Both the position numbers and the translations under genes were made by a program. The notes under the pieces were generated by a model. The model searched no databases and was not told the DNA's origin. It saw only the letters and a program-made list of their open reading frames with translations. Shown piece after piece: positions 4,099 to 58,508 of a stretch of DNA of 64,000 bases (position 1 is the stretch's first letter; the number at the start of each line of letters is the position of its first letter). The DNA is from Eunapius fragilis (lineage: Eukaryota > Porifera > Demospongiae > Spongillida > Spongillidae), in the NCBI GenBank assembly GCA_963681505.1, contig OY811978.1:6246586-6310585 (forward strand), written 5' to 3'.

Positions 4099-6219
4099 CA
4101 TGGCTCTACTATTTCTGTCCATTAATATGTGCATGTCATGACTTCATTGAACCCATTGACAAGGGGATATGCATGTTTTATTAAGACATGCGAGCTCTAG
4201 TGGTCAATTTACTTTCTATTAAATTGAGTGCTGAATAAATGGACAACTTCAGGATCTGATTATTTTGTATTCCAAATGTGACAGCACTAAATTTTAGTAG
4301 TGCTCGTTTGATGATCTCTAGCTTTTATTGTGGCACATTGCCTTGCCCTTATTTCTACACTGATAATATCATGCTTCTATCTACAGGTGCAACAGACTAT
4401 CATGGCAGGTTGTAGTCTGGGCTTGTCACCTCATTGCAAGCTACAGCTTGAAAAGTTTGGCAAGGTTATATATATGGCACATTGTGCATTCAGAAATTGT
4501 TTCCTTGTAATGATTACACGTACATGTAAAATGCCCTCATTTTAATGTTCACTCAATTTCAAATATATTCTTTCTGATTTGAGCAAATGGTATGTTGAAC
4601 AACCCGCGGTACCATTACCACTTGCCGAGCCTCCTGAGCAACTACCAGAGGTCCCAGCTGCCGTAGCTGATGTACCAGTAGCATCCCCTGCCGCCCTTCC
4701 ACATACAGCGCGTCGAGGGACATATCGACGCGCTGTATGTGGAAGGGCGGCAGGGGATGCTACTGGTACATCAGCTACGGCAGCTGGGACCTCTGGTAGT
4801 TGCTCAGGAGGCTCGGCAAGTGGTAGTGGTACCGCGGGTTGTTCAACTAATGGCACCGGGGGTAGTGGAGCCGCGGGAGTTCAATTAGTGGCACCGGGGG
4901 TAGTGGTGCCGCGGGTGGGATCCCCGGTACGCCGTCATCCGACGTATGAATGGGTCCCACCGCCGATTCAGTTAAACCTCGTTGTTCCTTTTTACTTCCG
5001 ATCAAAAGAAATGTTGAGCTGTAACCACTTATGACAGTAATAACGAGCACGCTTGTCGCTTACCTAAGCAACGATCCATTAGAAGGCTTAACGGTTTCCA
5101 ATAAATGCGCAATTCGATGTACTAAAAATCTCAAAATTACCAACACCCTTTCTTACTGTTGTGATAGATGACGACAGTATTATGTAATACCCTTGAGACG
5201 TATCTAAACAAACACTTGCTTCTCATTAGTGATAAAATCAACTATGAAGAAATTAAAAATGGCGTCTTGCCCTTTAACCCTCTGCAGTTCCCAGAACTAG
5301 CTGATACTCAAACTTTTTATTTTTTTTTAAATGTAAGGACAATGAACAGTTTTCATATACAAAAACAAAATTCTTAAGTATCACCCTGCAAGTGACCTAA
5401 ATATTGAAAACCGTGCTGTATAAACGTTTATTCTTTAACCCTTTCTCCTCTCCCACAAAAACATATTATAGTTGGATTGTACACTTAGAGAGCTTCAATT
5501 TGATGCCAACAATAGCCATACAGTTCTGTGAGTAGGGAGTTATGAGACTTCAAAGTGGAAAACAATTAATTATTCATGATGGTGTTAATTCGTAAACCAC
5601 TCGTGAGATTTTAAAAATTAATGCGTTAAAGTAACATCCATATTAGGTCAAGCAAATATGATAAATTGCACACAAATCTGAGGGGTACATGCCGATTCAT
5701 TTGTGTCAGGACATGGAATGACCCCATGGCTCTACTATTTCTGTCCATTAATATGTGCATGTCATGACTTCATTGAACCCATTGACAAGGGGATATGCAT
5801 GTTTTATTAAGACATGCGAGCTCTAGTGGTCAATTTACTTTCTATTAAATTGAGTGCTGAATAAATGGACAACTTCAGGATCTGATTATTTTGTATTCCA
5901 AATGTGACAGCACTAAATTTTAGTAGTGCTCGTTTGATGATCTCTAGCTTTTATTGTGGCACATTGCCTTGCCCTTATTTCTACACTGATAATATCATGC
6001 TTCTATCTACAGGTGCAACAGACTATCATGGCAGGTTGTAGTCTGGGCTTGTCACCTCATTGCAAGCTACAGCTTGAAAAGTTTGGCAAGGTTATATATA
6101 TGGCACATTGTGCATTCAGAAATTGTTTCCTTGTAATGATTACACGTACATGTAAAATGCCCTCATTTTAATGTTCACTCAATTTCAAATATATTCTTTC
6201 TGATTTGAGCAAATGGTAT
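2968..6219. repeat. Exact-looking tandem duplication, period 1,626 bp
   Basis: Sequence from about 2968 to 4593 is repeated directly at about 4594-6219 with no difference that I could see by eye. The unit holds the centre and right arm of the palindromic element plus about 495 bp of its right flank, including the CATG target-site copy (again at 5725-5728). The junction reads ggtatg/ttgaac. The lack of divergence implies either a very recent duplication or an assembly artefact at a palindrome. Confidence 0.85.
4594..5724. mobile_element. Second, partial copy of the palindromic element (centre + right arm)
   Basis: Part of the 1,626-bp tandem duplication. It contains about 126 bp left of the palindrome centre, the centre, and the whole right arm ending in AATGACCC followed by CATG. 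It arose by duplication of the neighbour rather than by an independent insertion, because it shares that neighbour's flank. Confidence 0.85.
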
Positions 6220-12225: not shown

Positions 12226-15200
12226 ATGCCTAGAGCATCTATTAAGCACTATGTGCCAGAAGATAAATTGGATACATGTCAGGCAAGGACCAAAGAGAAG
12301 GCAAACACATCCCATCAGGCAAGGACCAAAGAGAATGCAAACACATCCCATCAGGCAAGGACCAAAGAGAAGGCACACACATCTTCAATAAATGATTATT
12401 ACGTAACACAATGTCTCAATTACATAACACAATATTTCAGGTATATTCATCTAAACCCCCATGAGCAAAGATATCTTGGATTATTTTTATTTAATCCATC
12501 ATCATTTCCCTCATCTTCCATTCATTTTTTTTGTCCATTGGTATCACATTTGCAATCTGACATTTATTACTGGGAACTAATGAAGATGGCTCATTTTGGC
12601 TTGCTCTCACTTAAAGACAGTTCTAGCCTAAATAAACTTAGTGTAGATCAAAGAAGAAGGGTGTTACACACCTTTGGAGCAGCAATATGCCTTAAACAAA
12701 ACGGTGTGGATCAGACCATGTTTTCTACACTTCTAGCTATGCTTGGTCTTACTGACTCCTATAACTCTATGATGAGGATGTGTGTTATCCATAGGGCTGC
12801 ACAAAATGGTGTCATTGGTGGTGTTGCTACAAAGGTTGGAGAAATAAAAGGATTTAAGGACTCAGCTACATTTGCTCTGCATCGTGAAAATATATTTGTT
12901 ATAAAAGTTGCAAACGATTGTGGCACAGACCACCAGCCATTTAGTAGCGGTGAGCTCAAGCAGATTTTGCGAGAATTGGCAATTGGAATTTATCTGCATG
13001 ATACGTTTCCATTTTTCAGTCTCCATTTCAATGAGGATGGCTGCCTCTATCCGGTGATCCATCCTGCATACCAGAATACTTTGGTAGGAGAAGTGATTGG
13101 TTTCTTAGATTACTTCATGAAAGGGTTTTTAAATGGTGGTCTTTATGAAAAAAGTTTTCTGAAAGATTGGCATAAGTCAAGCAACATGGACAAGGAGTTT
13201 CTTAAAAACCACCTTATTGACTTGCAGCGTTATTGTCGAGACCATTTCCCCAACTCAGAATATATCTCATTGCGTGAAATGATGGCAAGAGAAGGATTAG
13301 AAGGTCCTGAACAAGACATGTCAGGCAACCCAGATTCAATATCTGGAAGAAGGTTCATGACATCATTTCGCATTATTTCACAAGTACGTGAGGCACGTGA
13401 ACAAGATGGGGTTTTTGTTATAGATCCTGACTTTGATGTTGAGTACACTGTTGACTTAATGCCTGATTACAAAGAATACATAGAAAGTTTTCAAAGAGAA
13501 AAAGGATCTTATCCAGCAAGTTATGAAACTCTATTGAGTGTTTATGAATCAATGAAAGACCTCATAAAAACATGGATGCCCAAAGTGCCCATATTCAAGG
13601 AATACTTTCAGATGCTTGGTGTGATTAGCTTTTGTTCTTGCTATCTGAATTCCATGAAACTGGCAGGACAGATTCCTAGTTTTAGAGAAGCCTCCAGTGT
13701 CCACAATGTTGCATTCCCAAAGGTGCTCCCTCCAATTCCAGTGCGCTATTACACATTTCACAAAATTAATTTAAGTTTAAAAGTGTTCATACAAGAATGC
13801 CAAGCTCAGGGAGTAGGCCTTGATCGGATCCTAAAGGAGTTTAGCCAGCAATCCATTCCTGAACCATCTCCCACAGCACAAATGCAAATAAAGAATGTAG
13901 TTGAGAGCCTTATCACAAAAGATGTTCCTTTGGAAGTAGTGTCTATGGGGATAAATCCAGAATTTTTGGCAAAGAATGTAAGAACAGTAACTCAGCATTT
14001 GATACAGTTCACAATGGCCTACCGTCATACTTTTAGAAAATTAGCAGAGGAATTATATTCAGTAATGCCTATGTTGGGAAAAATGGATGATTTTGATAGA
14101 AAAGCTGACCTGCAGGAACAGATTATTTTGATTAACACACTGATTGTTAGCTTTGAGAAGACACAATCTAAGTTGGCAGAACCAGCACTTCCACAGGAGA
14201 TTTTGCAGGAAATAGTTAAGAAAAGGGAGCAATCAATCATGGAATTTACTAAAAAAATAGTGCAGTCTATACAAGCTCAGGCATCTGGTGCAAAAGGTGA
14301 TTTGGATCGTACTGAAGAGTGCCTCAAAGGTAAAGCACAAGAATGTAATCAGGCAATATCCACAATGAATCAACTCTTGCACGAAGTCCCTGTCACAGAT
14401 GCACAACTGCGATCTGAATTCAGAAACCAGGTGTCCCAACATAGTAATGTAGATGTACCTGCCACAGTTGAATATAACTTACCAGGTTTTAAGCAACAAA
14501 TGCAGCAAAGATATCAAGAGATTCAAAGGGAAATTAGTAAGCTGCATGTAGCTCAACAACAAATTAAAGATAAATTGGGAGAACTTCAACAAGCACGCCA
14601 TGATCTTCCAGCCAAGATTGCTTCTTTAGAAAATGAGGCAGTACAGGAGATGAAAGTGGATGTTGGCAGACAGGTGATTGAACTTAAGAAGAAAGCTTTT
14701 GCTGAATGGATTTCTGCATCAAAGCAACGTATCAGTGAATATAAAAGTAAGCAAGACAGGCTTTCTGATGTGCTTTTTGATCAACCTTCTTCAGACATAA
14801 ATTTGGTGCCTAGTTATCCTCAGTCTACACTGACAATTGCAGATGGTGGCTATTATCGCTCAATTGGTGACAATATCAGAGTTGTTGGTGGCTGCAGTGT
14901 TCGATTGCCCACTATGAAGCTACAACCATTGTGGCAAAGTGAGCAAGGCCTGTTGTCTAAAGCCTGTTTTTTGGCACAACAACTGCAGCCAGAAACGTTC
15001 GAGATTTTGGAACATGATGGAAAAAAATATTCTATATTCAAAATTGAGACGATTCCAATGAATAATGATGTGAAAGGTTTTATGCCATTGATTTTGTCTT
15101 CAAAGCTTAACAAGGACAAGGAGTTGAATACTTTAGCAAAATTGCTGTTAAAACTTGGGGCAGATGAGGTGAAAGTTGAAGATGATTGGTTTAGTGCTAT

Positions 15201-18200
15201 TATGCAATATGGTAGAACAACTTTGGACCTAGTTGTTGAATCATGTGATACCGACACTTCTAATTTCATAATTCAACAATCTGGAGAGGATGCAGTAAAC
15301 ACTCCAACTGACAGTGGTGTTTTGCCATTGCACACTGCTTCCAGTTCAGGGAATATACTGGCTGTGAAAGCTTTGCTCATCAAACAGCCTGGCAACGTAA
15401 ATAAATGCACAAACAATGGGGAAACATCTTTAATGGCAGCAGCTTCAAGAGGTCACAATGAAACAGTTAAACTATTACTCGAGTGGTCAGCTGATGTCAA
15501 CCATCGCTTGCCATGTGGTCTAACAGCATTATGGGTAGCATTGCAGAATCATCATGAAGAAACATCTATCACTTTAATAAATCACATTGATTCAAATTTA
15601 ACATTAATACTTGACAATGGAGAGAATGTGTTGCATGAAGCAGTAAAACAGTCCTTGTTCAAAGCTGCTGAAGTACTGATAAAGCAAGGACTAAACTTGC
15701 TACAGCCACGAAAAACAGATGGGAAGACGCCATGGCATCTTGCAGCTGAGTTGGGCCAGGTTGATGTTCTGCAGGTAATGTTACAATCAGGTAGAATTAC
15801 GGATGTTAACATAACTATGGAAGTGCTGTATACTGCTGCACAGATGCCTAAAGCACTACAGAACTTAGTTGGAACAAGCGCACTGCATTGTGCAGCTGCT
15901 AAAGGTCATGTTGAAGTTGCATCTTTACTGATAGCAGCAAAAGCAGTGAATCTCACAAATAAACAGGGGTCTACTCCACTTGTTTTGGCAATGGAAAATG
16001 GATTTGAAGATTTTGCATTGATATTGGCAGACCAAAGCGGATTTGCCACTACAGCTGACCTTATCTGTGCTGCTAAGTTGAGGATGTTTAAAGTCTGTGA
16101 TGTCCTTGTAAGAAAAGGAGTATCTGGTCATGCTGGTTTTGATCTTGATTACGCTTACTATTTACTGGTCAATGGGCAATATTTCAGATATCGTTGCTTG
16201 GCAGAAGAAAATAAAGTGGATGTTAACAAACTATACAGTGGTGAGTCCAGTTTGGCACTTGCTGTGAAATATGGTCATGTACCACTAGCAAATTACCTTC
16301 TGCAGAAAGGAGTGCGTTACAAGTCCTCTCGAAACCGAGAATTGATTCATTGGCTTGTTATTGCTGATGACATTGGTTTTTTGCGAAAATGGCTAACTGA
16401 ACATTCATTGGTGGAAGGAAATATCACAAAAGGGTTGGAGAGTGGGAAAACTCTTTTTTATTTAGCAGCTGAACACGCCAGTATTCAGTGCTTGGTTTTG
16501 TTGAAAAAATGTGTGCCTACAGAGATGGTTACAAACTCTTGGAATGGCAAACATGTACTAGATGCAGTTATTCACAGTAGAAATATAAAAGTCCTTGAAA
16601 TTCTGTTACCATTAGTTGGTGACCTTAATCAAACAATAAATCCTGCAGGATATAATGCTATGACTTGGGCTGCAGAAATAGGATCAATTGCTTTTATCAA
16701 GCAGATACCATGTTGGGGTGGAAGTATTTTAAAGGAAGACTCACAAGGTCGTTCTTGTATGCAAGTTGCTTTATTGCACAATGACCTCAAGCTACTGCAT
16801 GCCATTTCTGAGATAGTTAATCCTAATGTTTGGCCCAAAGACATTTGGATAGCAGCAAACATTGGAGGTTGTAAGAAAAAAATTGTCTCTTGGTTGTTTG
16901 ATCAGTTAGCTGGTGAGCAAAAAATGGTTGATAAAGAGAAGTGTGTGATGGCACTTCACAATGCTATTTTTTCTGGAGATGGGGATCGTGTTGAAGCCAT
17001 TTTACAACTGATGAAAATGAATGACATTCTTGCATGTGTAAACAATACGGTAGTGGATGGCAGCACAGCTCTTGCACTTGCAACCAAAAATAGCCGGTGT
17101 AAAATAATTGATAATTTGCTGGCTTATGGTGCAAAGGCTGATTTTCCTTCAACTAAAGAATGTGCTCTGTTTGCAGCATGTGATTTAAATGATGTTGAAC
17201 TCCTGCGCAAATTTTTTCTCAGAAAAGCTTATTCAGTCCCCATTGCTAGTCACCTAATGCAGGATTTACAACTGCTTGCAACAAATGATTATATAAAAGA
17301 AGCCTTGTCAGGACATTTTATGATGCTTGACAGAGACAAAGAAGTACTGCTCTCTGCAATTCAAAATGAAAGGCTCAAGGATTATGAGAAAATGGTTCTG
17401 AAAGGGTTTCCAATTAATTGCACTTACATGACTATAAATGGTTCTGAATTACTATTGCCATTTGCATTGGTCCTGGTGCCTGCTCTTAAGGCTTTTTTGG
17501 AATTGAGCACTGAAAAACTGCGAATTGATGGTTTGGATAAAAATGGAAAGTCACTTGGATATTTCTTGATGATGCTGCCAGATGATGAATCAAAAGGCAC
17601 ACTGTCATACTTAAAAATGCGCTTCAAAAAGCAATTTCCATCGATGCTGAAGCTGACTGATGAGTTTTGTATACCAGCTATATCTCAAAAGAAAATCACA
17701 AGGTTGCTAAACATGCTGGAAACGACAGGAAGTGCATTGGAAACTGCTTTTGGGCCTGATGGTTGGACACTCTTACACCTAGCTGTCTGCTCTAAGAACT
17801 TGGCTGATGTTTCACATTTATTCAATAAATTTGAAAGCTTTCCTGTGGATAAACCAGATAAAAATGGTGTAACTGCACTCATGATGGCGGCAGCTAAAGA
17901 TAGTGAGTCCATCACTAGTGAATTGATGGCCAAAGGAGCAGATCCTAATGTGACAGACAGAAAAGGTAGAAATGCACTTCATCATGCATTGCGAGCCAAG
18001 GCAATGAAGACAAGTCTATTCTTGGTAAGTAAAATGCGAGACCTATCTGCTAAAGATAAGAGTGGAAAAACATTGCTGATGTATGCTGTACTGGGTACGA
18101 TGCACCCCATTATTCGCTCACTTTTAACTTACGGCGTGGATGTGTATGCTGCTGATGACAAAAATGGGTTTTCTGCTCTTCATTATGCTGCTCTGGTGGG

Positions 18201-21200
18201 AAATGTTGAAACAGTTAGAATCCTTCTCAAGCACAATAGAGTCAAGCCAGAGGATGTTAACGGTGCCTCAGCAGTAACCCCATTACATCTGGCATCTCGT
18301 CAGGGCCATGTTAGTGCTTGCATTGAGCTGTTGATTGCAGGAGCATGTCCAGCAGCAACGTATGGCGATGGAATCACACCAGCTAGTTTGTCTTTATCAC
18401 CTAAGCGTCCTGAGCTTGTACAATTGTTTCAACACACCACTGCATTTCATGTCGCTGGGCAAGATTTGCAAATGATCAAAGCGTGTTTAATGTCTGATAA
18501 TGCTGATAATTTGAGGCTTCTCATAAGTTTGAATGTAAATGTCAATGCAGTTGACCAGCATGGAATGAATGCATTACATTTTGCTGCTGTACATAATGCC
18601 CCATTATGTGCTAGTGTTCTGCTGGCAGCCAATTGCTCACCCAGTGTATCTGACTCTACTACTCTTTCAACCCCATTGCATCTGGCAGCCACTCATGGTC
18701 ATGTTGTGATCATACAAGAATTACTGGCATATGGAGCATCACCTCATGTTTTAGATAAGGAAGGAAACACTCCATTACTAAATGCTATAGCTGCAGGACA
18801 CTGTGGAGCAGTATTTGAGCTATTACACAATAATGTTGATTGCACACAATCATCTCGTGGTGGTTTGCGACCATCTGTAGCCTGTTTTATGCAGCCTAAT
18901 GAAAAAATTACTCAGGCAGTTGCTATTGTCAGCAAGGAATTACCAAGCGAGTCGGAAGTTGAAACATTACCTCAGTACATAGTTATCAAAATGAGTTTGC
19001 AAATGCCTTTACTAGAATTTATGAGAATTCACTGGAATCATTCTGTTCAATTAGGAGACACATTTTTGCATTTGGCAGTGCAAATGGGTTCTGTAGAATC
19101 AGTGCACCTACTATTGAATTCAGAGCCCCATTTGGTATGTATCAAAAACAAACAAGGGCATACAGCATTATCAGTAGCAGAGAACATTGAAAATACCAAA
19201 CCAGAACTATTGGCTGCTATGAGGAGGCATACATTACCATCACATCAACATGATGATCATTTTGATTTTGATGTCACAAAATGGTTAGTCATTGATCGTC
19301 AGCTGCATAAAACAGATGGATGTGGTATCCTGCATATACCAGAACACACAGGGAATGGGGAAGGAAATACATTGCGATTTACCCCTCCCAACATAGATGA
19401 GCTGAAATCATTTGCTCTGAGCAATATTCATCAGTGGTTCACACCTGAACAACAACCAGAGGCGAAACACTACTTGGAACTGTTATCATCAAGAGCTGTT
19501 CATAAATGGTTATCAAGCATATCCATGATAGCAAAAAAAGAGCATCCCACCTATTTCACTTCCTGGCTGAGCTGGTGTCAGGAACATTTGAGTGATGCTT
19601 CATGTGGCAAGCGTCTAGCAGAGCTCTTTCTTGACCATTATTCATGGTATCTATTACATTGTGTCCCCCAATGGAGAAGAACAGCTACAATTATTAAGAA
19701 TCTATCAAACGATAGCACACTTCTGCTCTGGGCAATGGAATATTTTAAGCCAAGTATTGTACGTGAAATTGAAATGGTTCAATGGAAAATCTATTGTCAG
19801 AATTGGATTGACTTCTATGAACTAACCAAACATGATGCTGCTTTTTTATGCCATCCACCATTTTCAGAGTCAATAAGTTGCACAATAAATTCTGACTATT
19901 TGATAAAATGTATAAAATGTTTGAAACATATACCATCATCCCAAAATGAACAAAGAAGAATACAGTACTTATTGTTAAATGAATTGCCACCTGACAAAGT
20001 CATTGATCATGTCCAAAAGAATGGTTATAAAGGGCCTGTTGCTAAACGACTTCTGATCGGAGGGTCTATATTTATACCTAAAGATGTGCCAAAGATGAGT
20101 AGAACTGGCGATTTGGGAAACTTCGCTGCCCAGACATTAGTATTCTCAATTTACCATAGTCCCTGTGCATTTCAGCACTTGTATAATTTTTTTACAATGC
20201 TGGATTGTGAACTTTCTCTTAGTCAGGAGGAAAAAAAAATTATCAGCTCTGTTGTATCCAATGGTCTTGAGGCTATATCTGAGAATTGGAAAGGCTTAAG
20301 CAGCTGGTTGGTGTTATCCAGACGATTGCGTGATGAGTTTGGCATTGAAGTACTACAAAAACTAATAGATTATGGCACCACTAAAGTGAAGCAACCAGTT
20401 GAGATGTTCACAAAATCAATACAATTGATGCTGGAACTTCTTCCGCATTTTAACAACATCATATTAGGAGAGGAGATAAACAGGAAAACTCAAAAACCAG
20501 ACAAAGCTAATGTTGCCCTACTATTGTCTAAGTGTCAATCTTTAGATTCATTTGTGGCTTGCTTACAAGATTTACTAAAACACGATTATGAGCAACGTTT
20601 TCCAGAAAAGCAAATCCAAGATGTTTGCAAACAGTTTCTAACAGCATCTCATTTTGTTCGTATCTGTTTGCCAGAAGCTGAGATGGCTAGATTTGTTAAA
20701 GATTATGAATCAATTGTGAGAATGTCTCAAACTTGTTTTGGCAAGTCCCTTGACTGCCTTGGAAAGGAAGCTCAACAATTGGGAAGTCAGCTGCTTCTGA
20801 ACAGAGATAATCAGCTGCTTCTCTTTGCTATAATCCGCCAGTCTATTCGGTTGCAATTTGGAATTTTGCCAAACAGCACCCAAATTATTACTGCATTAGC
20901 CATTTTAAGTGCGCATGATGGCCTAAAAGGACGCATTGCTCAAGTACGCACTGGAGAAGGGAAGTCAACAATCATCACAATTGTTGCAACATTTTTGGCG
21001 TGTCAAGGTCGCATTGTAGATATCATTACAGCAAATCATTACCTTGCAAATCGTGACCAGAACAAATACAAAGATTATTACAAATATTTTGGCATCAGTT
21101 GTTCACACATTTGCAAGAGGCCTCCTAAGCCAGAGCATTTTGATGCCCAAGTAGTTTTTGGAACTAACACAGACTTTGAATTCTCCATCATGTTTGATGC

Positions 21201-22905
21201 CATACAGGACACAAGATTACGTTTTATCAGCATAAATGGATTGAAACAACCAAGAATTTGTGATGCTGTTATTGTAGATGAAGTCGATAATCTTTTTATT
21301 GACACTGCGTTGAATTCTGCAAGAATTGCAAACCCTTCGTCCAGAGATGTGTCATGGGTGTATGAACCTTTGTGGTGTGCACTTCAAGAAAATCAATTTT
21401 TGTTTCTCACCTCAACACAGTATATTCGAATGGCACTGAAGAACTATCAGAATGGCAGGTTCTCCTCTCAAGTAGACACTTTTCCTGATGACATACTGAT
21501 TACCTGGAGAGACAGTGCATTAGGAGCAAGCAGAAAAAGGCTTGATCATGATTATGTGATATGTCCTTCTGAAGACAATGATGAAAAGCTTAAGGTTGTA
21601 ATAGTTGATCCAGATAACACAGGAAGATTGATGATAGGTAGTCGCTGGTCAAATGGTGTTCATGAATTTGTTGAGGTAAAGAATCATTTGAAACCTAAAA
21701 CACAAAGTGATACTGCAGCAGCTTTGTCTCATCCAGCTTTCTTTAACCTGTATAAAAATATCTATGGTTTAACTGGTACAATGGGAGAAGATATAGAAAG
21801 AAATGAAGTTGCTGACATTTACAAAGTTACTTCATTTGATGTGCCACCTCACAAGCCTTGCAACAGGAAAGAAGAGCCTTGCAAGATACTGAGTTGTCGT
21901 ATTGAGCATATTGAAGCTCTTGTTGATGAGATTAGGAAAAAACAAGTTGCTAGGCGACCAGTATTGGTGTTGTTTCCTACTATCAGGGAGAGTGAACTAT
22001 TTTCTATGTTTCTGAGGGAACGAAAAATAATTCACTTTGTTCTCAATGAAAAGCAGAAAGAGGATGAGGACTTCATCATTGCTAAAGCAGGGGAGTCTGG
22101 ACAATTGACTATAGCAACTAACCTGGCTGGCCGAGGCACTGACATCATTTTATCTTCGGAAAGCCTTGATGCTGGTGGTTTACATATTATTTTCACTTTC
22201 TTCCCTGTGAATCTGAGGGTTGAGGAACAAGGGTATGGAAGAGCAGGAAGACAGGGGCAACCTGGAACCTGCAATATGATTTTAAGTTTGGATGATCCTC
22301 TTATTTGCAGCCTTACTGCAGACCAAAAGGAAAAGAAGCAGCTTTTAGATAATCCTAATTTTCTTGCGTTCTTAAGAGAAAAACGTAGTGGCCACGTTTA
22401 TAATAAATCAGAAAAGAGAAAATTGGCATCAAAAAGGGAATCTATTATATTTGATTCAGTTTTAAAAGTTTTCTTTGATGCTCTGTGTATAATACGCACA
22501 AAAATAGAACTCATGGACTGCTCAATGATTAAAAAAGCAATCGAAACTAATTTGGAAAATTCAAGACATTGGTTGAACGACCCAACACATCCAAAGTTTG
22601 CCTACATATCAAGTGAAATTGCTCGTGTTCGAAATGGACTGAAGGGAAATATTCATTATTCAGAGTTGAAAGGGCTTCAGCCAAGATATATTGAATTATT
22701 GGTTGAAGAGTGGTCAGTGTTTTTCACTGATTTGGAGAGGTATTGTGATAATATGGACAGTGATGTTTCTTTAGCCTCATTTAAGGCAGATGTTCTTAAG
22801 AAGTTCAATGAATTCATGACCAGCAAATTAAATCAAACAGTTCAGGATCCTGTAGCAGATTTTTGTGATTGGTTGTCTGCCTTGAGCTCAGCAACTCTTC
22901 AATGA
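12226..22905 (+). CDS. Giant ankyrin-repeat / SecA-type ATPase fusion protein (3,559 aa)
   Basis: One uninterrupted exon. Residues ~15-55 are three near-identical 12-residue units (QARTKEKANTSH). Residues ~60-590 match no family I know. Residues ~600-860 are coiled-coil-like (Gln/Glu/Lys rich). Residues ~1025-2335 carry many ankyrin units (for example TPLHLASRQGHVSACIELL) with irregular spacers. Residues ~2880-3400 are a bacterial-type SecA motor: Walker A TGEGKS (2909-2914), DEVD (3018-3021), a cross-linking-like insert ending in GRLMIGSRWSNG (3133-3144), GLTGT (3181-3185), NLAGRGTDI (3299-3307) and GYGRAGRQGQ (3336-3345). All ATPase motifs look intact. In bacteria SecA drives preproteins through SecYEG; no SecY partner is visible here and eukaryotic cytosol has none, so the role is unknown. 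No signal peptide or membrane segment is obvious. Codon use is AT-rich like the surroundings, arguing against contamination. Confidence 0.95.
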   Translation: MPRASIKHYVPEDKLDTCQARTKEKANTSHQARTKENANTSHQARTKEKAHTSSINDYYVTQCLNYITQYFRYIHLNPHEQRYLGLFLFNPSSFPSSSIHFFCPLVSHLQSDIYYWELMKMAHFGLLSLKDSSSLNKLSVDQRRRVLHTFGAAICLKQNGVDQTMFSTLLAMLGLTDSYNSMMRMCVIHRAAQNGVIGGVATKVGEIKGFKDSATFALHRENIFVIKVANDCGTDHQPFSSGELKQILRELAIGIYLHDTFPFFSLHFNEDGCLYPVIHPAYQNTLVGEVIGFLDYFMKGFLNGGLYEKSFLKDWHKSSNMDKEFLKNHLIDLQRYCRDHFPNSEYISLREMMAREGLEGPEQDMSGNPDSISGRRFMTSFRIISQVREAREQDGVFVIDPDFDVEYTVDLMPDYKEYIESFQREKGSYPASYETLLSVYESMKDLIKTWMPKVPIFKEYFQMLGVISFCSCYLNSMKLAGQIPSFREASSVHNVAFPKVLPPIPVRYYTFHKINLSLKVFIQECQAQGVGLDRILKEFSQQSIPEPSPTAQMQIKNVVESLITKDVPLEVVSMGINPEFLAKNVRTVTQHLIQFTMAYRHTFRKLAEELYSVMPMLGKMDDFDRKADLQEQIILINTLIVSFEKTQSKLAEPALPQEILQEIVKKREQSIMEFTKKIVQSIQAQASGAKGDLDRTEECLKGKAQECNQAISTMNQLLHEVPVTDAQLRSEFRNQVSQHSNVDVPATVEYNLPGFKQQMQQRYQEIQREISKLHVAQQQIKDKLGELQQARHDLPAKIASLENEAVQEMKVDVGRQVIELKKKAFAEWISASKQRISEYKSKQDRLSDVLFDQPSSDINLVPSYPQSTLTIADGGYYRSIGDNIRVVGGCSVRLPTMKLQPLWQSEQGLLSKACFLAQQLQPETFEILEHDGKKYSIFKIETIPMNNDVKGFMPLILSSKLNKDKELNTLAKLLLKLGADEVKVEDDWFSAIMQYGRTTLDLVVESCDTDTSNFIIQQSGEDAVNTPTDSGVLPLHTASSSGNILAVKALLIKQPGNVNKCTNNGETSLMAAASRGHNETVKLLLEWSADVNHRLPCGLTALWVALQNHHEETSITLINHIDSNLTLILDNGENVLHEAVKQSLFKAAEVLIKQGLNLLQPRKTDGKTPWHLAAELGQVDVLQVMLQSGRITDVNITMEVLYTAAQMPKALQNLVGTSALHCAAAKGHVEVASLLIAAKAVNLTNKQGSTPLVLAMENGFEDFALILADQSGFATTADLICAAKLRMFKVCDVLVRKGVSGHAGFDLDYAYYLLVNGQYFRYRCLAEENKVDVNKLYSGESSLALAVKYGHVPLANYLLQKGVRYKSSRNRELIHWLVIADDIGFLRKWLTEHSLVEGNITKGLESGKTLFYLAAEHASIQCLVLLKKCVPTEMVTNSWNGKHVLDAVIHSRNIKVLEILLPLVGDLNQTINPAGYNAMTWAAEIGSIAFIKQIPCWGGSILKEDSQGRSCMQVALLHNDLKLLHAISEIVNPNVWPKDIWIAANIGGCKKKIVSWLFDQLAGEQKMVDKEKCVMALHNAIFSGDGDRVEAILQLMKMNDILACVNNTVVDGSTALALATKNSRCKIIDNLLAYGAKADFPSTKECALFAACDLNDVELLRKFFLRKAYSVPIASHLMQDLQLLATNDYIKEALSGHFMMLDRDKEVLLSAIQNERLKDYEKMVLKGFPINCTYMTINGSELLLPFALVLVPALKAFLELSTEKLRIDGLDKNGKSLGYFLMMLPDDESKGTLSYLKMRFKKQFPSMLKLTDEFCIPAISQKKITRLLNMLETTGSALETAFGPDGWTLLHLAVCSKNLADVSHLFNKFESFPVDKPDKNGVTALMMAAAKDSESITSELMAKGADPNVTDRKGRNALHHALRAKAMKTSLFLVSKMRDLSAKDKSGKTLLMYAVLGTMHPIIRSLLTYGVDVYAADDKNGFSALHYAALVGNVETVRILLKHNRVKPEDVNGASAVTPLHLASRQGHVSACIELLIAGACPAATYGDGITPASLSLSPKRPELVQLFQHTTAFHVAGQDLQMIKACLMSDNADNLRLLISLNVNVNAVDQHGMNALHFAAVHNAPLCASVLLAANCSPSVSDSTTLSTPLHLAATHGHVVIIQELLAYGASPHVLDKEGNTPLLNAIAAGHCGAVFELLHNNVDCTQSSRGGLRPSVACFMQPNEKITQAVAIVSKELPSESEVETLPQYIVIKMSLQMPLLEFMRIHWNHSVQLGDTFLHLAVQMGSVESVHLLLNSEPHLVCIKNKQGHTALSVAENIENTKPELLAAMRRHTLPSHQHDDHFDFDVTKWLVIDRQLHKTDGCGILHIPEHTGNGEGNTLRFTPPNIDELKSFALSNIHQWFTPEQQPEAKHYLELLSSRAVHKWLSSISMIAKKEHPTYFTSWLSWCQEHLSDASCGKRLAELFLDHYSWYLLHCVPQWRRTATIIKNLSNDSTLLLWAMEYFKPSIVREIEMVQWKIYCQNWIDFYELTKHDAAFLCHPPFSESISCTINSDYLIKCIKCLKHIPSSQNEQRRIQYLLLNELPPDKVIDHVQKNGYKGPVAKRLLIGGSIFIPKDVPKMSRTGDLGNFAAQTLVFSIYHSPCAFQHLYNFFTMLDCELSLSQEEKKIISSVVSNGLEAISENWKGLSSWLVLSRRLRDEFGIEVLQKLIDYGTTKVKQPVEMFTKSIQLMLELLPHFNNIILGEEINRKTQKPDKANVALLLSKCQSLDSFVACLQDLLKHDYEQRFPEKQIQDVCKQFLTASHFVRICLPEAEMARFVKDYESIVRMSQTCFGKSLDCLGKEAQQLGSQLLLNRDNQLLLFAIIRQSIRLQFGILPNSTQIITALAILSAHDGLKGRIAQVRTGEGKSTIITIVATFLACQGRIVDIITANHYLANRDQNKYKDYYKYFGISCSHICKRPPKPEHFDAQVVFGTNTDFEFSIMFDAIQDTRLRFISINGLKQPRICDAVIVDEVDNLFIDTALNSARIANPSSRDVSWVYEPLWCALQENQFLFLTSTQYIRMALKNYQNGRFSSQVDTFPDDILITWRDSALGASRKRLDHDYVICPSEDNDEKLKVVIVDPDNTGRLMIGSRWSNGVHEFVEVKNHLKPKTQSDTAAALSHPAFFNLYKNIYGLTGTMGEDIERNEVADIYKVTSFDVPPHKPCNRKEEPCKILSCRIEHIEALVDEIRKKQVARRPVLVLFPTIRESELFSMFLRERKIIHFVLNEKQKEDEDFIIAKAGESGQLTIATNLAGRGTDIILSSESLDAGGLHIIFTFFPVNLRVEEQGYGRAGRQGQPGTCNMILSLDDPLICSLTADQKEKKQLLDNPNFLAFLREKRSGHVYNKSEKRKLASKRESIIFDSVLKVFFDALCIIRTKIELMDCSMIKKAIETNLENSRHWLNDPTHPKFAYISSEIARVRNGLKGNIHYSELKGLQPRYIELLVEEWSVFFTDLERYCDNMDSDVSLASFKADVLKKFNEFMTSKLNQTVQDPVADFCDWLSALSSATLQ
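12279..12388 (+). repeat. 36-bp coding minisatellite, three copies
   Basis: Three tandem copies of a 36-nt unit (caggcaaggaccaaagagaa...) near the start of the long ORF. The length is a multiple of three, so copy-number change would keep the frame. The repeated peptide is basic and hydrophilic. A second frame through it is also open, simply because the unit is repeated. Confidence 0.85.
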
Positions 22906-23946: not shown

Positions 23947-24790
23947 CTATTTTAGGCAAATGAATCGACTTGGACAATCAGCTGATAATTTGCTAGTCAG
24001 GCTATAATGCACAACACAACAGCAGATTAGAGAATTGGATACTAATGATTTCAAGTTGGACACATTTGATTTATGGGTTCTGTGACTGCTCTTAGCAGGC
24101 TGATCATGATTAAACTTCCTAAGATATCTAACAATGTGCTCTGAGTCATACTCAGCACAGCTCAAAGTAATGAAGAGGGTTGGGGAGCCCCATTCTCTCA
24201 ACATGCATTTAAGTTCACTACTTCTATGGAACCAGTATTGTTTAGTACCACGAATAGACTTGAATATTGTGGAAAGATTTGCCCCAATACATTCATCTGA
24301 TTTATTAAATGCAGCAAGGAATTCGTGCACAGGCATTTTGGCCTTAGCTGTGCTCTTCAGAACATTGTAAATGCCTGCTGAATTTGTCACATTTCTTGTT
24401 GCCACAATAAAAAGAAGACATATTGTGGATCTTTTCGAAAGCGAGAATCTCTGTTGAGTAGCCTGGATTTAGCATATTCTGATGCAGTTATGCATGGGTG
24501 GAATATTAATATTCACCATACTGTCCTGAGGGAAACAATGTTGGAAAACACATCACATCTTGCAAGGTGTCCTGCCTGTTTTCGATCAGATCATCTTTTA
24601 CATTCAGTATCTTGTACTGATCAACATCCAGCAAAGCTGATCCTTGTTTGATCATGACCGAATTGTGTACGACTGAAAATTTGCTATGTCCTCAACAGAT
24701 GCCTTTTCTAACATTTTGCTAGAGACCTTGTCAACTACTTCAACAACTTGCTTTGCTGCATCTTCAAGAGATGTATCATCTACGTTTTTG
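23947..24790 (-). pseudogene. Helitron Rep/helicase N-terminal fragment
   Basis: The minus strand encodes pieces typical of the Helitron helicase-like N-terminal domain: LQDVMCFPTLFPSGQYGEY, AKMPVHEFLAAFNKSDE, IRGTKQYWFHRSSELKCML and GSPTLFITLSCAEYDSEH. These are the conserved landmarks before and around the replication-initiator region. The reading is interrupted in places and the HUH and helicase cores were not found, so this is a broken piece. Upstream on the same strand (about 24660-24790) a further open stretch (LEKASVEDIANFQSYTI) continues it. Helitrons transpose by rolling-circle replication. Confidence 0.75.
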
Positions 24791-55584: not shown

Positions 55585-56628
55585 TTAAAGTTTGCTTTCT
55601 TCCTGAAGGTCAACTATAACCTTTCCAATACTCTGAGATGAATACAGGTAGTCAACAGCATCAAACACAGAGTTAATACCTTTAAATGACCTCCCTGTGG
55701 AGCTTTGAGATCCCATGTCAACACATGACTGGAGTTTGTTTGCCAGGCACAGCTCAGATAGCCTGGTTACATGCTTTGGTACCATTCGGTGGTGGTTATT
55801 CAAGAAAAATCCACTAATGGTTGCTGATTTCTGCAGCAGAATTTGAAACACTGGTAGTGTTGGCCTTGACGCAAATGAAGACGACTCTTGATACCCCGAT
55901 ACAAACCCAATGATAATCAGTCTCCCTCCAACAGCAAGATTTTTAATGCATGTGTTGAGCATGTCACCACCCACCGATTCATAGACCACATCTACTCCCT
56001 GAGGGTACTCCTCCTTGAGCACTGTGGCTAAGCTTTCTGTCTTGTAGTTCACAGGGCGATCACACCCCAATTTTTTTAGGAAGTCAACTTTCGTATCAGA
56101 CGAGCAGGTTCCGATGACGTAGCAGCCGGCCAGTTTGGCCAGTTGAACCGCGAACTGCCCAGTGCCTCCAGCAGCCGCTGTGACGAGTACCTTGTCTCCT
56201 GGCTTCAGTTTCCCCATAAGTTCAAGGCTGATAGAAGCTGTGCTACCACTCACAAGCAGTGGTACAAAGTCAGGACGAAGACTTGGAAGCGGAATAAGAC
56301 GTTTGGTTGGAACCGCTATATATTCGCTGAAAGCACCATATTGCATAAAGCCAACAGGCGCCCCTAGCTTAACGTCAGTGCAGTTAGTACCCACACTGAC
56401 AACCTCACCAACGGCTTCGAAGCCAGTGTCAAATGGTGGTGTAATTCCTGCTATGTATCTTCCGGCTGTAAAGTTGATATCGGATGCATTTATACCAACA
56501 TACCGATTGCGAACAAGCACCTCGTCTGGGCCTGGTCGAGGGGTTTCAGTCATCTTTACCTGCACGCATTCTCTGAAACGGTTGCTGAGAGATACCGCTA
56601 CGAGCTTCTTGCAACTGCGTGGAATCAT
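55585..56628 (-). CDS. PTGR3: PTGR3 / ZADH2, prostaglandin reductase 3 (347 aa)
   Basis: NAD(P)H-dependent medium-chain oxidoreductase of the quinone-reductase group, which in mammals reduces 15-keto-prostaglandins. Single exon; human is about 377 residues, most of the difference probably lying in the N-terminal extension. Residues ~25-130 are the GroES-like catalytic fold (NRYVGINASDINFTAGRY, GFEAVGEVVSVG). Residues ~140-330 are the Rossmann cofactor fold with AAAGGTGQFA at 151-160 and GVDVVYESVGGDM. The structural and catalytic zinc ligands of true alcohol dehydrogenases are absent, as usual for this family. The frame is intact. It is divergent from FDXACB1 with 80 bp between start codons. 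Physiological substrate in this organism unknown. Confidence 0.95.
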   Translation of the reverse strand: MIPRSCKKLVAVSLSNRFRECVQVKMTETPRPGPDEVLVRNRYVGINASDINFTAGRYIAGITPPFDTGFEAVGEVVSVGTNCTDVKLGAPVGFMQYGAFSEYIAVPTKRLIPLPSLRPDFVPLLVSGSTASISLELMGKLKPGDKVLVTAAAGGTGQFAVQLAKLAGCYVIGTCSSDTKVDFLKKLGCDRPVNYKTESLATVLKEEYPQGVDVVYESVGGDMLNTCIKNLAVGGRLIIIGFVSGYQESSSFASRPTLPVFQILLQKSATISGFFLNNHHRMVPKHVTRLSELCLANKLQSCVDMGSQSSTGRSFKGINSVFDAVDYLYSSQSIGKVIVDLQEESKL

Positions 56629-56708
56629 GGTAGTACAATAATCGAGGTATTAATAGCCAGACTTTTTTAACCCCTTATTATGAGCTGCTTTGTGCGTGCT
56701 TATAAAGT
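56629..56708. promoter_or_regulatory. Bidirectional promoter, PTGR3 / FDXACB1
   Basis: 80 bp between two divergent start codons. The stretch contains tattaatag and ttataaagt near the two ends, possible weak TATA-like elements, but neither is proven. The spacing parallels the 74-bp GPR89/POLR2H promoter. Confidence 0.7.
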
Positions 56709-58508
56709 ATGGAAAAGAGGCAATGGTGGTTGGTGGTAGGTGATGGTAATTTCTCCTTTTCTTTGAGCTTATTAAAGACTGCTTCACACCTCAACTTGAT
56801 CACATCAACCCTCCTTTCGCGCAGCGACGATCCGGAGATTATTCAAAATGTAGCGTCACTCGAGCGAATGGGCGTGGTCGTGCTACATGAAGTTGACGGA
56901 ACGCACCTCTCACAGTGTACTTACCTCAGACAACACTGTCCTCGTTTTGATGTGATAGTTTTCAATTTTCCTCATACCGGGGGGAAAAGCAACATCAAGC
57001 AGAACAGAGAGCTAATTAGCGGGTTCTTTAAATCTGGTGCGCAGTTTTTAAACAGTGATGGTGAAATTCACGTTACTTTATGCAAAGGTCAGGGCGGTAC
57101 GTCCATGGACTGCACCAAACGTGGTTATGAAAATTCGTGGAAAATAGTCGAAATGGCTGCCTCTGCAAATCTTCTTTTGGCAGGAGTTGAACCATTTCCA
57201 AGTGCATTGTACCCTTCTTATGAACCAACAGGGTATAGAGGCCTCGGTAAAGGGTTTTCTTTGGAAGGAGCCATGAAACATGTATTCAGATTTCCACAAA
57301 TTGATCACTTGCACTGGTTTATGAGTACTCAAGGACTCCATGTATGTGAGACTTGCACTAACAGTGCATCCAGTGACGTGATTGTTCCAGCTGAATTGCA
57401 AGATGCTGTAAACTACCCACTACTGTCTCACCCTTGGCACCCTGTTGTGCAAGTAAAAAACATCTTGGTTGGTCATTTAAAAAACTCCTTGCACCATGAT
57501 GGCTGGGTTGGATGTGTTGATGTTCCACATATACAAATTCACCAAATACCATCTCCTTGTGTTCCTAATCATATGGCCAGTGCACACGAAACAGTCGTTC
57601 TGCATTGCCCCAATTGTAAGCTGGATGCATGTGACAGTCCTTGTACTGGAGCTCACAATGATGATATACACACGGGTCATGCCTTCTTCACATCACTAGA
57701 ACTGGATATTCCGAGACTTGCATCTCAGATGTGTGTCAGCGAAAAGGCTTCTCTTCCTCTTGTATGCTCACCGGTTGTTCACAATGTTGAGATTTCATTG
57801 GGTTCATCTGCTCAGCTTGTGAGCCATGAATTGATGGGTATAATTCAACTGAAGGTTGGAGAATCAAGCCAAAGATTAGAAGTGCAACTTACTAAACTTC
57901 TGGACGGGGTACTGAGGGAGTCTCCTGGGTTGCCTCAGGAAGTGGCAGCAGCACCACATGCACATCTCTGGGACTGCGTGCCGGGAACGTATGTGGATGA
58001 GTGGAAGGTACTATCAATAGGAGGCTATGGGAACATTGCTAAACTAGGCGCTCATTCAACAGGCATGAATATGTATTTCGTTTTCATTTTCCTCCTTGAA
58101 TCCCTTGCAATGTTGCACTATGGTATCAGCGATGTTCGTCTAATGAGAAGTAAAGATGTTCATTTTTCTGCTCAGTTTGTTGGACATCCAGTCCTGAAGT
58201 ATGCTCCTTTCTGCTTAAGTTGTCCGTATTATAAACATGATATAAGCTTTTGGCATATCTTCTCAGACAATTGTTTGAGCAAAGTAAGGCAGAAGCTATC
58301 CTTTGCTATCAAACAGATTGCTGGTGGTATTGTAATAGACTTGACTTGCCTTGACGTGTACCACAATCCCGATGGCAACAACATAAGCTACTGTTTTCGA
58401 GTTACCTACAATCATTATGACCAGCCACTTTCAAAGGCACAATCAAATATTTTGCAGCTCATGATCAGGGAAGCCCTGAGCCGAGATCCTGAAATTACGT
58501 TGCGCTGA
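56709..58508 (+). CDS. FDXACB1: FDXACB1, BMT5-like plus ferredoxin-fold anticodon-binding protein (599 aa)
   Basis: Single intact exon; human FDXACB1 has about 624 residues. Residues ~5-185 form the DUF2431/BMT5-like Rossmann methyltransferase-type domain, with the SAM-loop-like LVVGDGNFSFSLSLL at the start, FNFPHTGGKS, and HVTLCKGQGG. The middle (~200-480) is less conserved. Residues ~500-599 match the FDX-ACB domain found at the C-terminus of mitochondrial phenylalanyl-tRNA synthetase (HDISFWHI, YCFRVTYNHYDQPLS). BMT5 in yeast methylates 25S rRNA uridine at N3; whether FDXACB1 does so is not established. Start codon chosen as the first ATG after the short shared promoter, placing the glycine motif at the usual position. 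Confidence 0.93.
   Translation: MEKRQWWLVVGDGNFSFSLSLLKTASHLNLITSTLLSRSDDPEIIQNVASLERMGVVVLHEVDGTHLSQCTYLRQHCPRFDVIVFNFPHTGGKSNIKQNRELISGFFKSGAQFLNSDGEIHVTLCKGQGGTSMDCTKRGYENSWKIVEMAASANLLLAGVEPFPSALYPSYEPTGYRGLGKGFSLEGAMKHVFRFPQIDHLHWFMSTQGLHVCETCTNSASSDVIVPAELQDAVNYPLLSHPWHPVVQVKNILVGHLKNSLHHDGWVGCVDVPHIQIHQIPSPCVPNHMASAHETVVLHCPNCKLDACDSPCTGAHNDDIHTGHAFFTSLELDIPRLASQMCVSEKASLPLVCSPVVHNVEISLGSSAQLVSHELMGIIQLKVGESSQRLEVQLTKLLDGVLRESPGLPQEVAAAPHAHLWDCVPGTYVDEWKVLSIGGYGNIAKLGAHSTGMNMYFVFIFLLESLAMLHYGISDVRLMRSKDVHFSAQFVGHPVLKYAPFCLSCPYYKHDISFWHIFSDNCLSKVRQKLSFAIKQIAGGIVIDLTCLDVYHNPDGNNISYCFRVTYNHYDQPLSKAQSNILQLMIREALSRDPEITLR

What the first reader, a model, noticed from the sequence alone, without database searches (positions are those of the whole stretch)
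12226..22905. A genuine SecA export ATPase fused to an ankyrin array in an animal-like nuclear gene
Sequence shows every SecA signature in order: TGEGKS, DEVD, a ~160-residue insert ending in GRLMIGSRWSNG (the SecA cross-linking domain lies here), GLTGT, NLAGRGTDI, GRAGRQGQ. Known: SecA is the bacterial and plastid preprotein motor and is absent from typical animal proteomes. Inference: an ancient bacterial acquisition rebuilt as a host protein with ankyrin recognition and coiled-coil parts. It could be a polypeptide-pulling or immune-type machine. Intact motifs over 3,559 codons imply selection.
Basis: partly seen in the sequence, partly recalled or inferred. Interest (0 to 1): 0.9.

Follow-up and report, generated by a model that had tools for sequence, protein, structure and literature searches.

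The report
Animal copy of bacterial SecA-ankyrin giant
An animal-like genome carries one intact 3,559-codon gene that joins a bacterial protein-pulling motor (SecA type) to a long ankyrin array, and the same whole protein occurs in a bacterium related to known cell-dwelling species, so the machine seems to have arrived ready-made and then been kept by the host.

Summary
Window 12226-22905 is one open frame of 3,559 codons whose C-terminal part is a real SecA-type ATPase (NCBIfam SecA 1.3e-87; all named motifs; a SecA-length insert). The flanks are eukaryotic.

The reading "SecA rebuilt by the host with ankyrins" does not hold. A Rickettsiales-order genome (G243) encodes a collinear 3,780-aa protein (30% identity over 3,573 columns). 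In 11 of 143 genomes of a gammaproteobacterial order, N-domain and motor lie in adjacent frames. The N-domain has no clear match in Pfam, NCBIfam, PHROGs or PDB. In the trees the window protein lies among these bacterial proteins, apart from housekeeping SecA.

Contamination is unlikely: codon-boundary CpG is 28 against 141 expected, with a TpG/CpA excess absent in G243's gene and slight in G568's. CpG remains where its loss changes the protein (63/102) and is scarce where silent loss is possible (50/280), which suggests selection in the host.

Giant secA-like genes shared by insects and Wolbachia were published in 2013, so this is a new variant of a known kind. Direction bacteria-to-animal is favoured, not proven. 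Proposed function (inferred): an ATP-driven polypeptide-pulling remodeller aimed by ankyrins, working without SecYEG.

The parts
12226..22905 (+). Single ORF without intron, 3,559 aa: N-domain, coiled coil, ankyrins, helical part, SecA-type ATPase
12226..12708 (+). Residues 1-161: not aligned to the bacterial homologue in BLASTP; holds a 36-bp tandem repeat (12279-12383). The true start codon may lie downstream
12709..13785 (+). N-terminal domain, residues 162-520, unnamed family; 33-45% identical to the 8 bacterial members aligned
   Evidence: no clear match in Pfam, NCBIfam, PHROGs or PDB
13786..15300 (+). Helical/coiled-coil region (residues 521-1025) with a conserved patch near 866-890; boundaries approximate, read from the alignment
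15301..19215 (+). Ankyrin array, about residues 1026-2330 (Ank_2: 13 stretches); boundaries approximate
   Evidence: no ankyrin match in 2326-2825
19216..20820 (+). Helical region between ankyrins and motor; no Pfam family
   Evidence: its end is conserved with L116
20821..22305 (+). SecA-type motor: NBD1, cross-linking-type insert, NBD2
20950..20967 (+). TGEGKS nucleotide-binding loop (residues 2909-2914)
21277..21288 (+). DEVD (residues 3018-3021)
21292..21618 (+). SecA-length insert at the place of the preprotein cross-linking domain (residues 3023-3131)
21766..21780 (+). GLTGT (residues 3181-3185)
22120..22146 (+). NLAGRGTDI (residues 3299-3307)
22237..22260 (+). GRAGRQGQ (residues 3338-3345)
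22306..22902 (+). Helical tail in place of the helical scaffold/wing; no SecA zinc tail; no TPR extension such as L116 has
55588..56649 (-). Context: zinc-binding dehydrogenase gene (354-codon open frame)
56706..58505 (+). Context: FDXACB1-like gene (BMT5-like plus a below-cut-off FDX-ACB match)

Best explanation
The gene is a resident copy, in an animal-like nuclear genome, of a giant protein family of apparently cell-dwelling bacteria: N-domain, coiled coil, ankyrin array, helical part, SecA-type ATPase. Shown: the whole architecture exists in one bacterial ORF; the motor belongs to a separate SecA-like clade, not to housekeeping SecA; the window ORF has lost most silent CpGs with a TpG/CpA excess, as expected in a CpG-methylated host, while keeping CpGs whose loss would change the protein. 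Favoured, not proven: transfer went from bacteria to host. Inferred mechanism: the two motor domains bind and hydrolyse ATP, the SecA-length insert closes as a clamp on an unfolded polypeptide, and cycles of the motor pull or unfold it. The ankyrins and N-domain choose the client or dock the motor. Because the C-terminal wing and the zinc tail of SecA are not recognisable, it would work as a cytosolic remodeller, not as an exporter.
For: Collinear BLASTP 1378 bits, 1080/3573 identities (30%) with L116; L116 lies on a contig of about 30% GC with resolvase, MazF-like and SSB-like genes. N-domain in 14 of 143 genomes of the order of G1078, with the motor 6.3-8.9 kb further on the same contig and strand, in the next frame, in 11 of these 14. 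Trees: window in a set with G243 and G1275 (94/93 on the motor; 98/99 with the N-domain added); 7-member family 97/90, apart from the SecAs (100/100). Host residence: codon-boundary CpG 28 vs 141.0, z -12.6; TG 1.32x, CA 1.75x; L116 CG 0.55x, TG 1.05x, CA 0.88x. Constraint: CpG observed/expected 0.62 at codon positions 1-2 against 0.16 and 0.20 elsewhere; no such contrast in L116 or L120. Motor fold: model pLDDT 72.8, best PDB match by E-value the substrate-engaged SecA-SecY 5eul, TMq 0.72.
Against: No eukaryotic protein database was available, so the animal side of the tree is one sequence. A tree holding all six bacterial members together without the window is not rejected (AU p 0.0668 on the motor; 0.139 with the N-domain). 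Published authors argued eukaryote-to-bacterium for related Wolbachia genes (PMC3639933). L116 itself is CpG-poor (0.39), so CpG loss alone is not diagnostic; G568's frame has a slight TG and CA excess (1.09x, 1.18x). Codon usage of the ORF correlates a little better with L116 (0.91) than with the two host genes (0.86). The fold model used an alignment of SecAs, which partly imposes the SecA fold, and its tail is poorly predicted. Only 95 of 163 SecA-conserved columns are kept (3 of 14 after NBD2). No expression or activity data.
Confidence: 0.66

Rival explanations
1. Opposite direction: the family arose in eukaryotes and was captured by bacteria (as argued in 2013 for the Wolbachia wBol1 secA genes).
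For: PMC3639933 section 9: two Wolbachia genes with full-length matches only to insect proteins at that time; PMC5062602 section 6: phage WO SecA domains closer to invertebrates than to bacteria; PMC4256840 passage lists a Legionella fallonii SecA DEAD-like protein in its section on eukaryotic proteins transferred horizontally. AU tests do not exclude a bacterial clade without the window.
Against: The two-frame form, the basal branch of G568 and the neighbouring group of Rickettsiales giants are all bacterial; a clade of five bacterial members without the window is rejected with the N-domain added (p 0.0167), though not on the motor alone (p 0.108); motors of SecA type are bacterial (general knowledge).
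Confidence: 0.2
2. Bacterial contaminant or chimeric assembly joined to host sequence.
For: Bacterial homologues exist; no intron; codon usage correlates slightly better with L116 than with host genes (0.91 vs 0.86). A 604-nt perfect palindrome with further copies at 2487-5328 hints at assembly trouble nearby.
Against: CpG loss with TpG/CpA excess over the whole ORF, absent in L116 and slight in L120; GC3 0.32 against 0.20 in L116; none of the bacterial motor cores compared is above 54% identical to it.
Confidence: 0.03
3. Host-made fusion: a captured SecA was joined to native ankyrin and coiled-coil parts.
For: Ankyrins are common in animals (general knowledge).
Against: Collinearity of the full chain with a bacterial ORF, including the unnamed N-domain.
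Confidence: 0.03
4. A decaying insertion without function in the host.
For: No expression evidence; only 30% identical to L116 overall.
Against: 3,559 codons open although 20 CGA codons are one CpG transition from a stop; silent CpGs lost, protein-changing CpGs kept; motifs intact.
Confidence: 0.08

Closest known systems
G243 ORF (L116:3433-14772, Rickettsiales-order genome, unnamed)
   Same: Whole architecture, same order, one ORF; 30% identity over 3,573 columns, 52-54% in the motor core
   Different: About 30% GC; a hydrophobic N-terminal stretch (by eye) and C-terminal TPRs that the window ORF lacks; carries TGS where SecA has TGR
Two-frame form in the order of G1078 (unnamed gammaproteobacteria)
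   Same: Same N-domain and same motor, next to each other on one strand in 11 of 143 genomes
   Different: N-domain frame (2288-2678 aa) and motor frame (962-1349 aa) are separate; whether the N-domain frame holds ankyrins was not examined. A second locus in G1078 (frames 2794 and 2767 aa, an in-frame TGA in the N-domain match) may be a one-gene form; not examined
Giant secA genes of Wolbachia wBol1-b (wBol1_1091, wBol1_1092) and insect/Daphnia homologues (PMC3639933)
   Same: Very long secA-domain genes shared by animals and intracellular bacteria, little evidence of introns, outside the prokaryotic SecA clade (as stated in the paper for wBol1_1092)
Housekeeping SecA (e.g. B. subtilis 1tf5, E. 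coli 2fsf)
   Same: ATPase motifs, insert length, overall motor fold
   Different: Separate clade; mean core identity 33% over 103 SecA rows; no zinc tail; 3 of 14 conserved columns kept after NBD2

Membership tests
Housekeeping SecA | ATPase signature motifs in order | tested here: met
Housekeeping SecA | Preprotein cross-linking insert of SecA length | tested here: met
   109 residues vs 107-133; the profile match covers only the end of the Pfam domain
Housekeeping SecA | Conserved C-terminal part (wing/scaffold) and zinc-binding tail | tested here: not met
   3 of 14 conserved columns after NBD2 kept; zinc motif absent (found in 23 of 32 SecAs)
Housekeeping SecA | Branches with housekeeping SecA | tested here: not met
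   G243 and G568 each carry a separate SecA of housekeeping size
Housekeeping SecA | Passes NCBIfam's curated SecA cut-offs | tested here: not met
   best 294.6 bits against a cut-off of 862
Giant N-domain/ankyrin/SecA-like family (defined here) | N-domain homologous to the bacterial members | tested here: met
Giant N-domain/ankyrin/SecA-like family (defined here) | Motor in the same supported clade | tested here: met
   97/90, 98/91
Giant N-domain/ankyrin/SecA-like family (defined here) | Ankyrin array between N-domain and motor | tested here: met
   window and L116; not examined in the order of G1078
Insect/Wolbachia giant secA genes (wBol1_1091/1092 type) | Full-length sequence similarity | not tested
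   their sequences were not at hand by name; only the paper text was read
Polypeptide-translocating motor | Polypeptide-stimulated ATPase and threading | not testable with these tools
   needs purified protein

The most novel reading that the evidence does not exclude
An animal lineage has domesticated a complete giant motor of intracellular bacteria and uses it as an ankyrin-guided, ATP-driven polypeptide unfoldase in its own cytosol, for instance to dismantle proteins of the same intracellular bacteria. The adjacent-frame form in other bacteria then means that the SecA-like motor and the N-domain protein are partners.
Probability: 0.25. Interest if true: 0.88.

Novelty: new variant of a known kind. 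Interest (0 to 1): 0.62.

Why it matters
Long secA-like genes shared by insects and Wolbachia were known, but their source and make-up were open. Here a full-length bacterial homologue and an adjacent-frame bacterial form were found for an animal-like gene, which tells how the giant protein is built, suggests that its motor and its N-domain half belong together, and makes the direction of transfer testable. The CpG contrast gives selection evidence from a single sequence. If active, it would be an animal protein-pulling motor of a kind not described in the paper parts that I read.

Tried and rejected
No whole genome is held for the window, so reads, paralogues elsewhere and the species could not be checked; the phylum stays undetermined. 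Within the window no second piece of this protein, nor of the L116 protein, was found by tblastn at E up to 1. Single-sequence fold of the N-domain was useless (pLDDT 35.4) and I draw nothing from it. N-domain searches without a relative: PDB profile; Pfam (only weak scattered hits, best 0.0066); NCBIfam (only weak hits of 0.048 and 0.075) and PHROGs; plasmids and phages; viral contigs; a peptide-pattern scan of genome contigs; 240 sampled Alphaproteobacteria (without a known positive in the sample, so the blank is weak). A motor scan of viral contigs with the single sequence found nothing; with an alignment it gave 15 loci with SecA-like proteins. Weak N-domain hits: G765 (6.9e-4; not matched) and G1206 (5.9e-4); I do not take either as a member, though G1206 is one of the tool's 14 of 143. 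In the order of G243 only 1 of 343 genomes has the N-domain, so it is rare there, and the other Rickettsiales giants are linked by the motor only. Planctomycetes (199 genomes; best 250.7 bits, a 973-aa frame; the three short SecA-like proteins used in the trees 189-202 bits) were considered as source and rejected by the trees. That the one-ORF forms (window, G243) pair to the exclusion of G1275 is not supported: G1275 groups with one or the other, and tests do not decide (p 0.203, 0.314). Rows left out before trees: 17 duplicate or partial loci; thinning took 103 SecA rows to 18; one search used a hand-picked set of 28 comparison rows, without L115, L131, L134, L143 and L145, which were (L115, L131 and L143 were its long branches); L148, a duplicate of L120, was left out. 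Literature: 8 of 10 searches used; I saw no paper on this N-domain in those listings, which is no proof that none exists. PMC8195603 was opened for passages and gave nothing on this gene.

Full report
WHAT IS THERE. Window 12226-22905 (+) is one open frame of 3,559 codons. From N to C: an unnamed domain (residues 162-520), a helical/coiled-coil stretch, an ankyrin array (Ank_2 4.4e-95, 13 stretches; about 1026-2330), a helical stretch without family, and a SecA-type motor (SecA_DEAD 1.1e-44, P-loop_SecA 3.9e-34, SecA_PP_bind 9.6e-6). NCBIfam SecA models reach 1.3e-87, though below their own cut-offs (294.6 against 862 bits); 24 of the 25 PDB sequences listed are SecA. The insert at the place of the cross-linking domain has 109 residues, against 107-133 in the 30 SecAs that could be measured of 32. 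Of 163 columns conserved in those 32 SecAs the window keeps 95: 27 of 51 up to DEVD, 11 of 17 in the insert, 14 of 25 up to the GLTGT part, 40 of 56 in NBD2, but 3 of 14 after it. The zinc motif is absent (23 of 32 SecAs have it). A model made with 32 SecA sequences (mean pLDDT 72.8, pTM 0.71) matches SecA structures above all: the first 36 of the 50 rows shown are SecA, first 5eul, SecA engaged with SecY and a substrate (E 1.4e-39, TMq 0.72). The alignment consisted of SecAs, so the fold match is partly built in, and the tail is poorly predicted.

THE SURROUNDINGS ARE EUKARYOTIC. The window holds a hAT transposase (49906-51192), a Helitron-like stretch (23950-24468), a tyrosine-recombinase element (44614-46329), a zinc-binding dehydrogenase gene (55588-56649) and a gene with a BMT5-like domain and a below-cut-off FDX-ACB match (56706-58505) (4 of the 10 frames given had no Pfam match). 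The last resembles animal FDXACB1 (recalled, not tested). No tRNA gene or Rfam match was found. The organism could not be named; 'animal' is the likely reading, not a result.

THE WHOLE ARCHITECTURE IS BACTERIAL. SecAs in plasmids, phages and genome contigs are mostly 26-37% identical to the motor in local alignments (a few short phage pieces up to 53%). A search of 174 genomes of the order of a Wolbachia genome (G001) gave one outlier: G243, 571 bits, 41% over 762 of 768 motor residues. Its 14.8-kb contig (L116) is about 30% GC, carries a resolvase, a MazF-like toxin with a ribbon-helix-helix partner and an SSB-like gene, and an ORF of 3,780 aa that runs off the contig end. BLASTP of the two proteins gives 1,378 bits and 1080/3573 identities from window residue 162 onward. 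L116 goes on with TPR repeats; tblastn found no trace of these elsewhere in the window. G243 also has a SecA of housekeeping size.

THE N-DOMAIN. Profiles of the N-domain found it in 1 of 343 genomes of the order of G243, 1 of 23 of its family, 2 of 274 (one of them, G765, only at 6.9e-4) and 2 of 369 sampled Gammaproteobacteria (overlapping samples), 1 of 2 of the order of G568, 14 of 143 of the order of G1078 (one of them, G1206, only at 5.9e-4), and 0 of 240 sampled Alphaproteobacteria (no positive control). It has no clear relative in PDB, Pfam, NCBIfam or PHROGs. Nine aligned members share many invariant residues.

ONE GENE OR TWO. In the order of G1078 the motor lies 6.3-8.9 kb beyond the N-domain, on the same contig and strand, in 11 of the 14 N-domain genomes. 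G1171 has them on two contigs; G1197 and G1206 show no motor of this kind. The N-domain frames are 2288-2678 aa, the motor frames 962-1349 aa, and in all 11 the motor match begins 451-1440 nt after the end of the N-domain frame, so the frames are neighbours; in 3 of the 11 they share the same reading frame. I did not examine whether those N-domain frames contain ankyrins. A second locus of G1078 (frames 2794 and 2767 aa, an in-frame TGA in the N-domain match) may be a one-gene form; I left it unexamined. In G568 an ankyrin-like frame (by eye) ends where the motor ORF begins, while the N-domain lies on another contig. So the motor and the N-domain half travel together, as two frames or as one gene, which argues that they work together. 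All 15 genomes asked also have a SecA frame of housekeeping size (897-975 aa), and several carry further giant frames with a SecA-like stretch.

TREES. Motor core, 35 rows: the window falls with G243 and G1275 (94/93), then three other members of the order of G1078 (98/97), then G568 (97/90). Nine giant SecA-like proteins of Rickettsiales are the neighbouring group, and the SecAs are apart (100/100). With N-domain columns added the three-member set has 98/99. The N-domain alone pairs window and G1275 (95/91). A clade of all six bacterial members without the window is not rejected (p 0.0668 on the motor; 0.139 with the N-domain); a clade of the five nearest without it is rejected with the N-domain (p 0.0167) and not on the motor alone (0.108). 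So nesting inside bacteria is favoured, not proven, and the eukaryotic side is a single sequence.

RESIDENT AND CONSTRAINED. The ORF has CpG observed/expected 0.28 and TpG/CpA 1.45; the flanks have 0.50 and 1.31; L116 has 0.39 and 1.05; G568's N frame 1.01 and 1.13. With protein and codon usage held fixed, codon-boundary CpG is 28 against 141.0 expected (z -12.6), TG 1.32x and CA 1.75x; the motor part alone shows the same (4 against 31.1). The two host genes give CG 0.59x, TG 1.30x, CA 1.41x. L116 has CG 0.55x but TG 1.05x and CA 0.88x; L120 0.84x, 1.09x, 1.18x. CpG loss together with TpG and CpA gain is the mark of methylated CpG decaying in a host, not of the bacterial relatives. Against full adaptation: codon usage of the ORF correlates slightly better with L116 (0.91) than with the host genes (0.86). 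CpG at codon positions 1-2, where a transition changes the protein, is 63 of 102 expected, but 22 of 139 and 28 of 141 at the two places where a silent escape exists. L116 (0.38, 0.39, 0.51), L120 (1.13, 1.23, 0.88) and the two host genes (0.43, 0.64, 0.58) show no such contrast. The frame is open although 20 CGA codons each lie one CpG transition from a stop. I read this as purifying selection after arrival. The expectation rests on base composition by codon position; orthologues would be a better test.

WHAT IS KNOWN. In 2013 two Wolbachia wBol1-b genes of 4,488 and 11,829 nt with a secA domain were found to match insect proteins full length, with further matches in Daphnia and protists, and related genes in Amoebophilus; the authors argued for transfer from eukaryotes (PMC3639933, section 9 read). 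The 2016 phage WO paper lists SecA among domains closer to invertebrates than to bacteria (PMC5062602, section 6 read). A Legionella comparison lists a SecA DEAD-like protein of L. fallonii in its section on eukaryotic proteins transferred horizontally (PMC4256840, passage). 'Ca. Aquarickettsia' shows that Rickettsiales live in corals, sponges and placozoans (PMC6863919, passages). So an animal giant secA-like gene is not new in kind. New to me here are the unnamed N-domain, the full-length bacterial homologue, the two-frame form and the CpG evidence.

MECHANISM. Shown: the ATP-binding and hydrolysis motifs and a clamp-sized insert are there; the C-terminal part of SecA is not recognisable by conservation. 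Inferred: the motor grips an unfolded chain and pulls it, the ankyrins and N-domain select the client or place the motor, and SecYEG is not needed. In bacteria the protein may act on the host cell; in the animal it may serve proteostasis or defence against such bacteria. None of these last roles was tested.

Noticed in passing
window 2487-3702, 4594-5328: Perfect 604-nt inverted repeat with an 8-nt spacer, plus a further copy of an arm; either a fold-back element or a palindromic assembly artefact, about 7 kb from the ORF.
   Followed up: partly
G380, G270, G239, G368, G316, G350, G282, G221, G254 (Rickettsiales order); motor loci L132-L141: Nine genomes with SecA-like motors, in frames of 1,026 to 3,048 aa at the places put in the trees (one further frame in G380 has 4,932 aa), that form their own clade next to the window family and apart from SecA (G270 only): a wider set of giant SecA-like proteins.
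   Followed up: partly
order of G1078, e.g. G1231, G1259, G1206, G1213: Many additional giant frames (about 2,300-4,100 aa) with partial SecA-like matches, several per genome; architecture not examined.
   Followed up: no
L130:8582 (G568:C84): An ankyrin-like frame and the SecA-like ORF of G568 overlap at one base, suggesting translational coupling.
   Followed up: partly
G002, G206, G117 (Planctomycetes), L005 (Mesorhizobium plasmid): Short SecA-like proteins (frames of about 630-725 aa) without the usual C-terminal part; a supported clade of their own among SecAs.
   Followed up: no
window 12279-12383: 36-bp unit repeated 2.9 times in the part of the ORF that does not align to bacteria; may precede the true start.
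   Followed up: no
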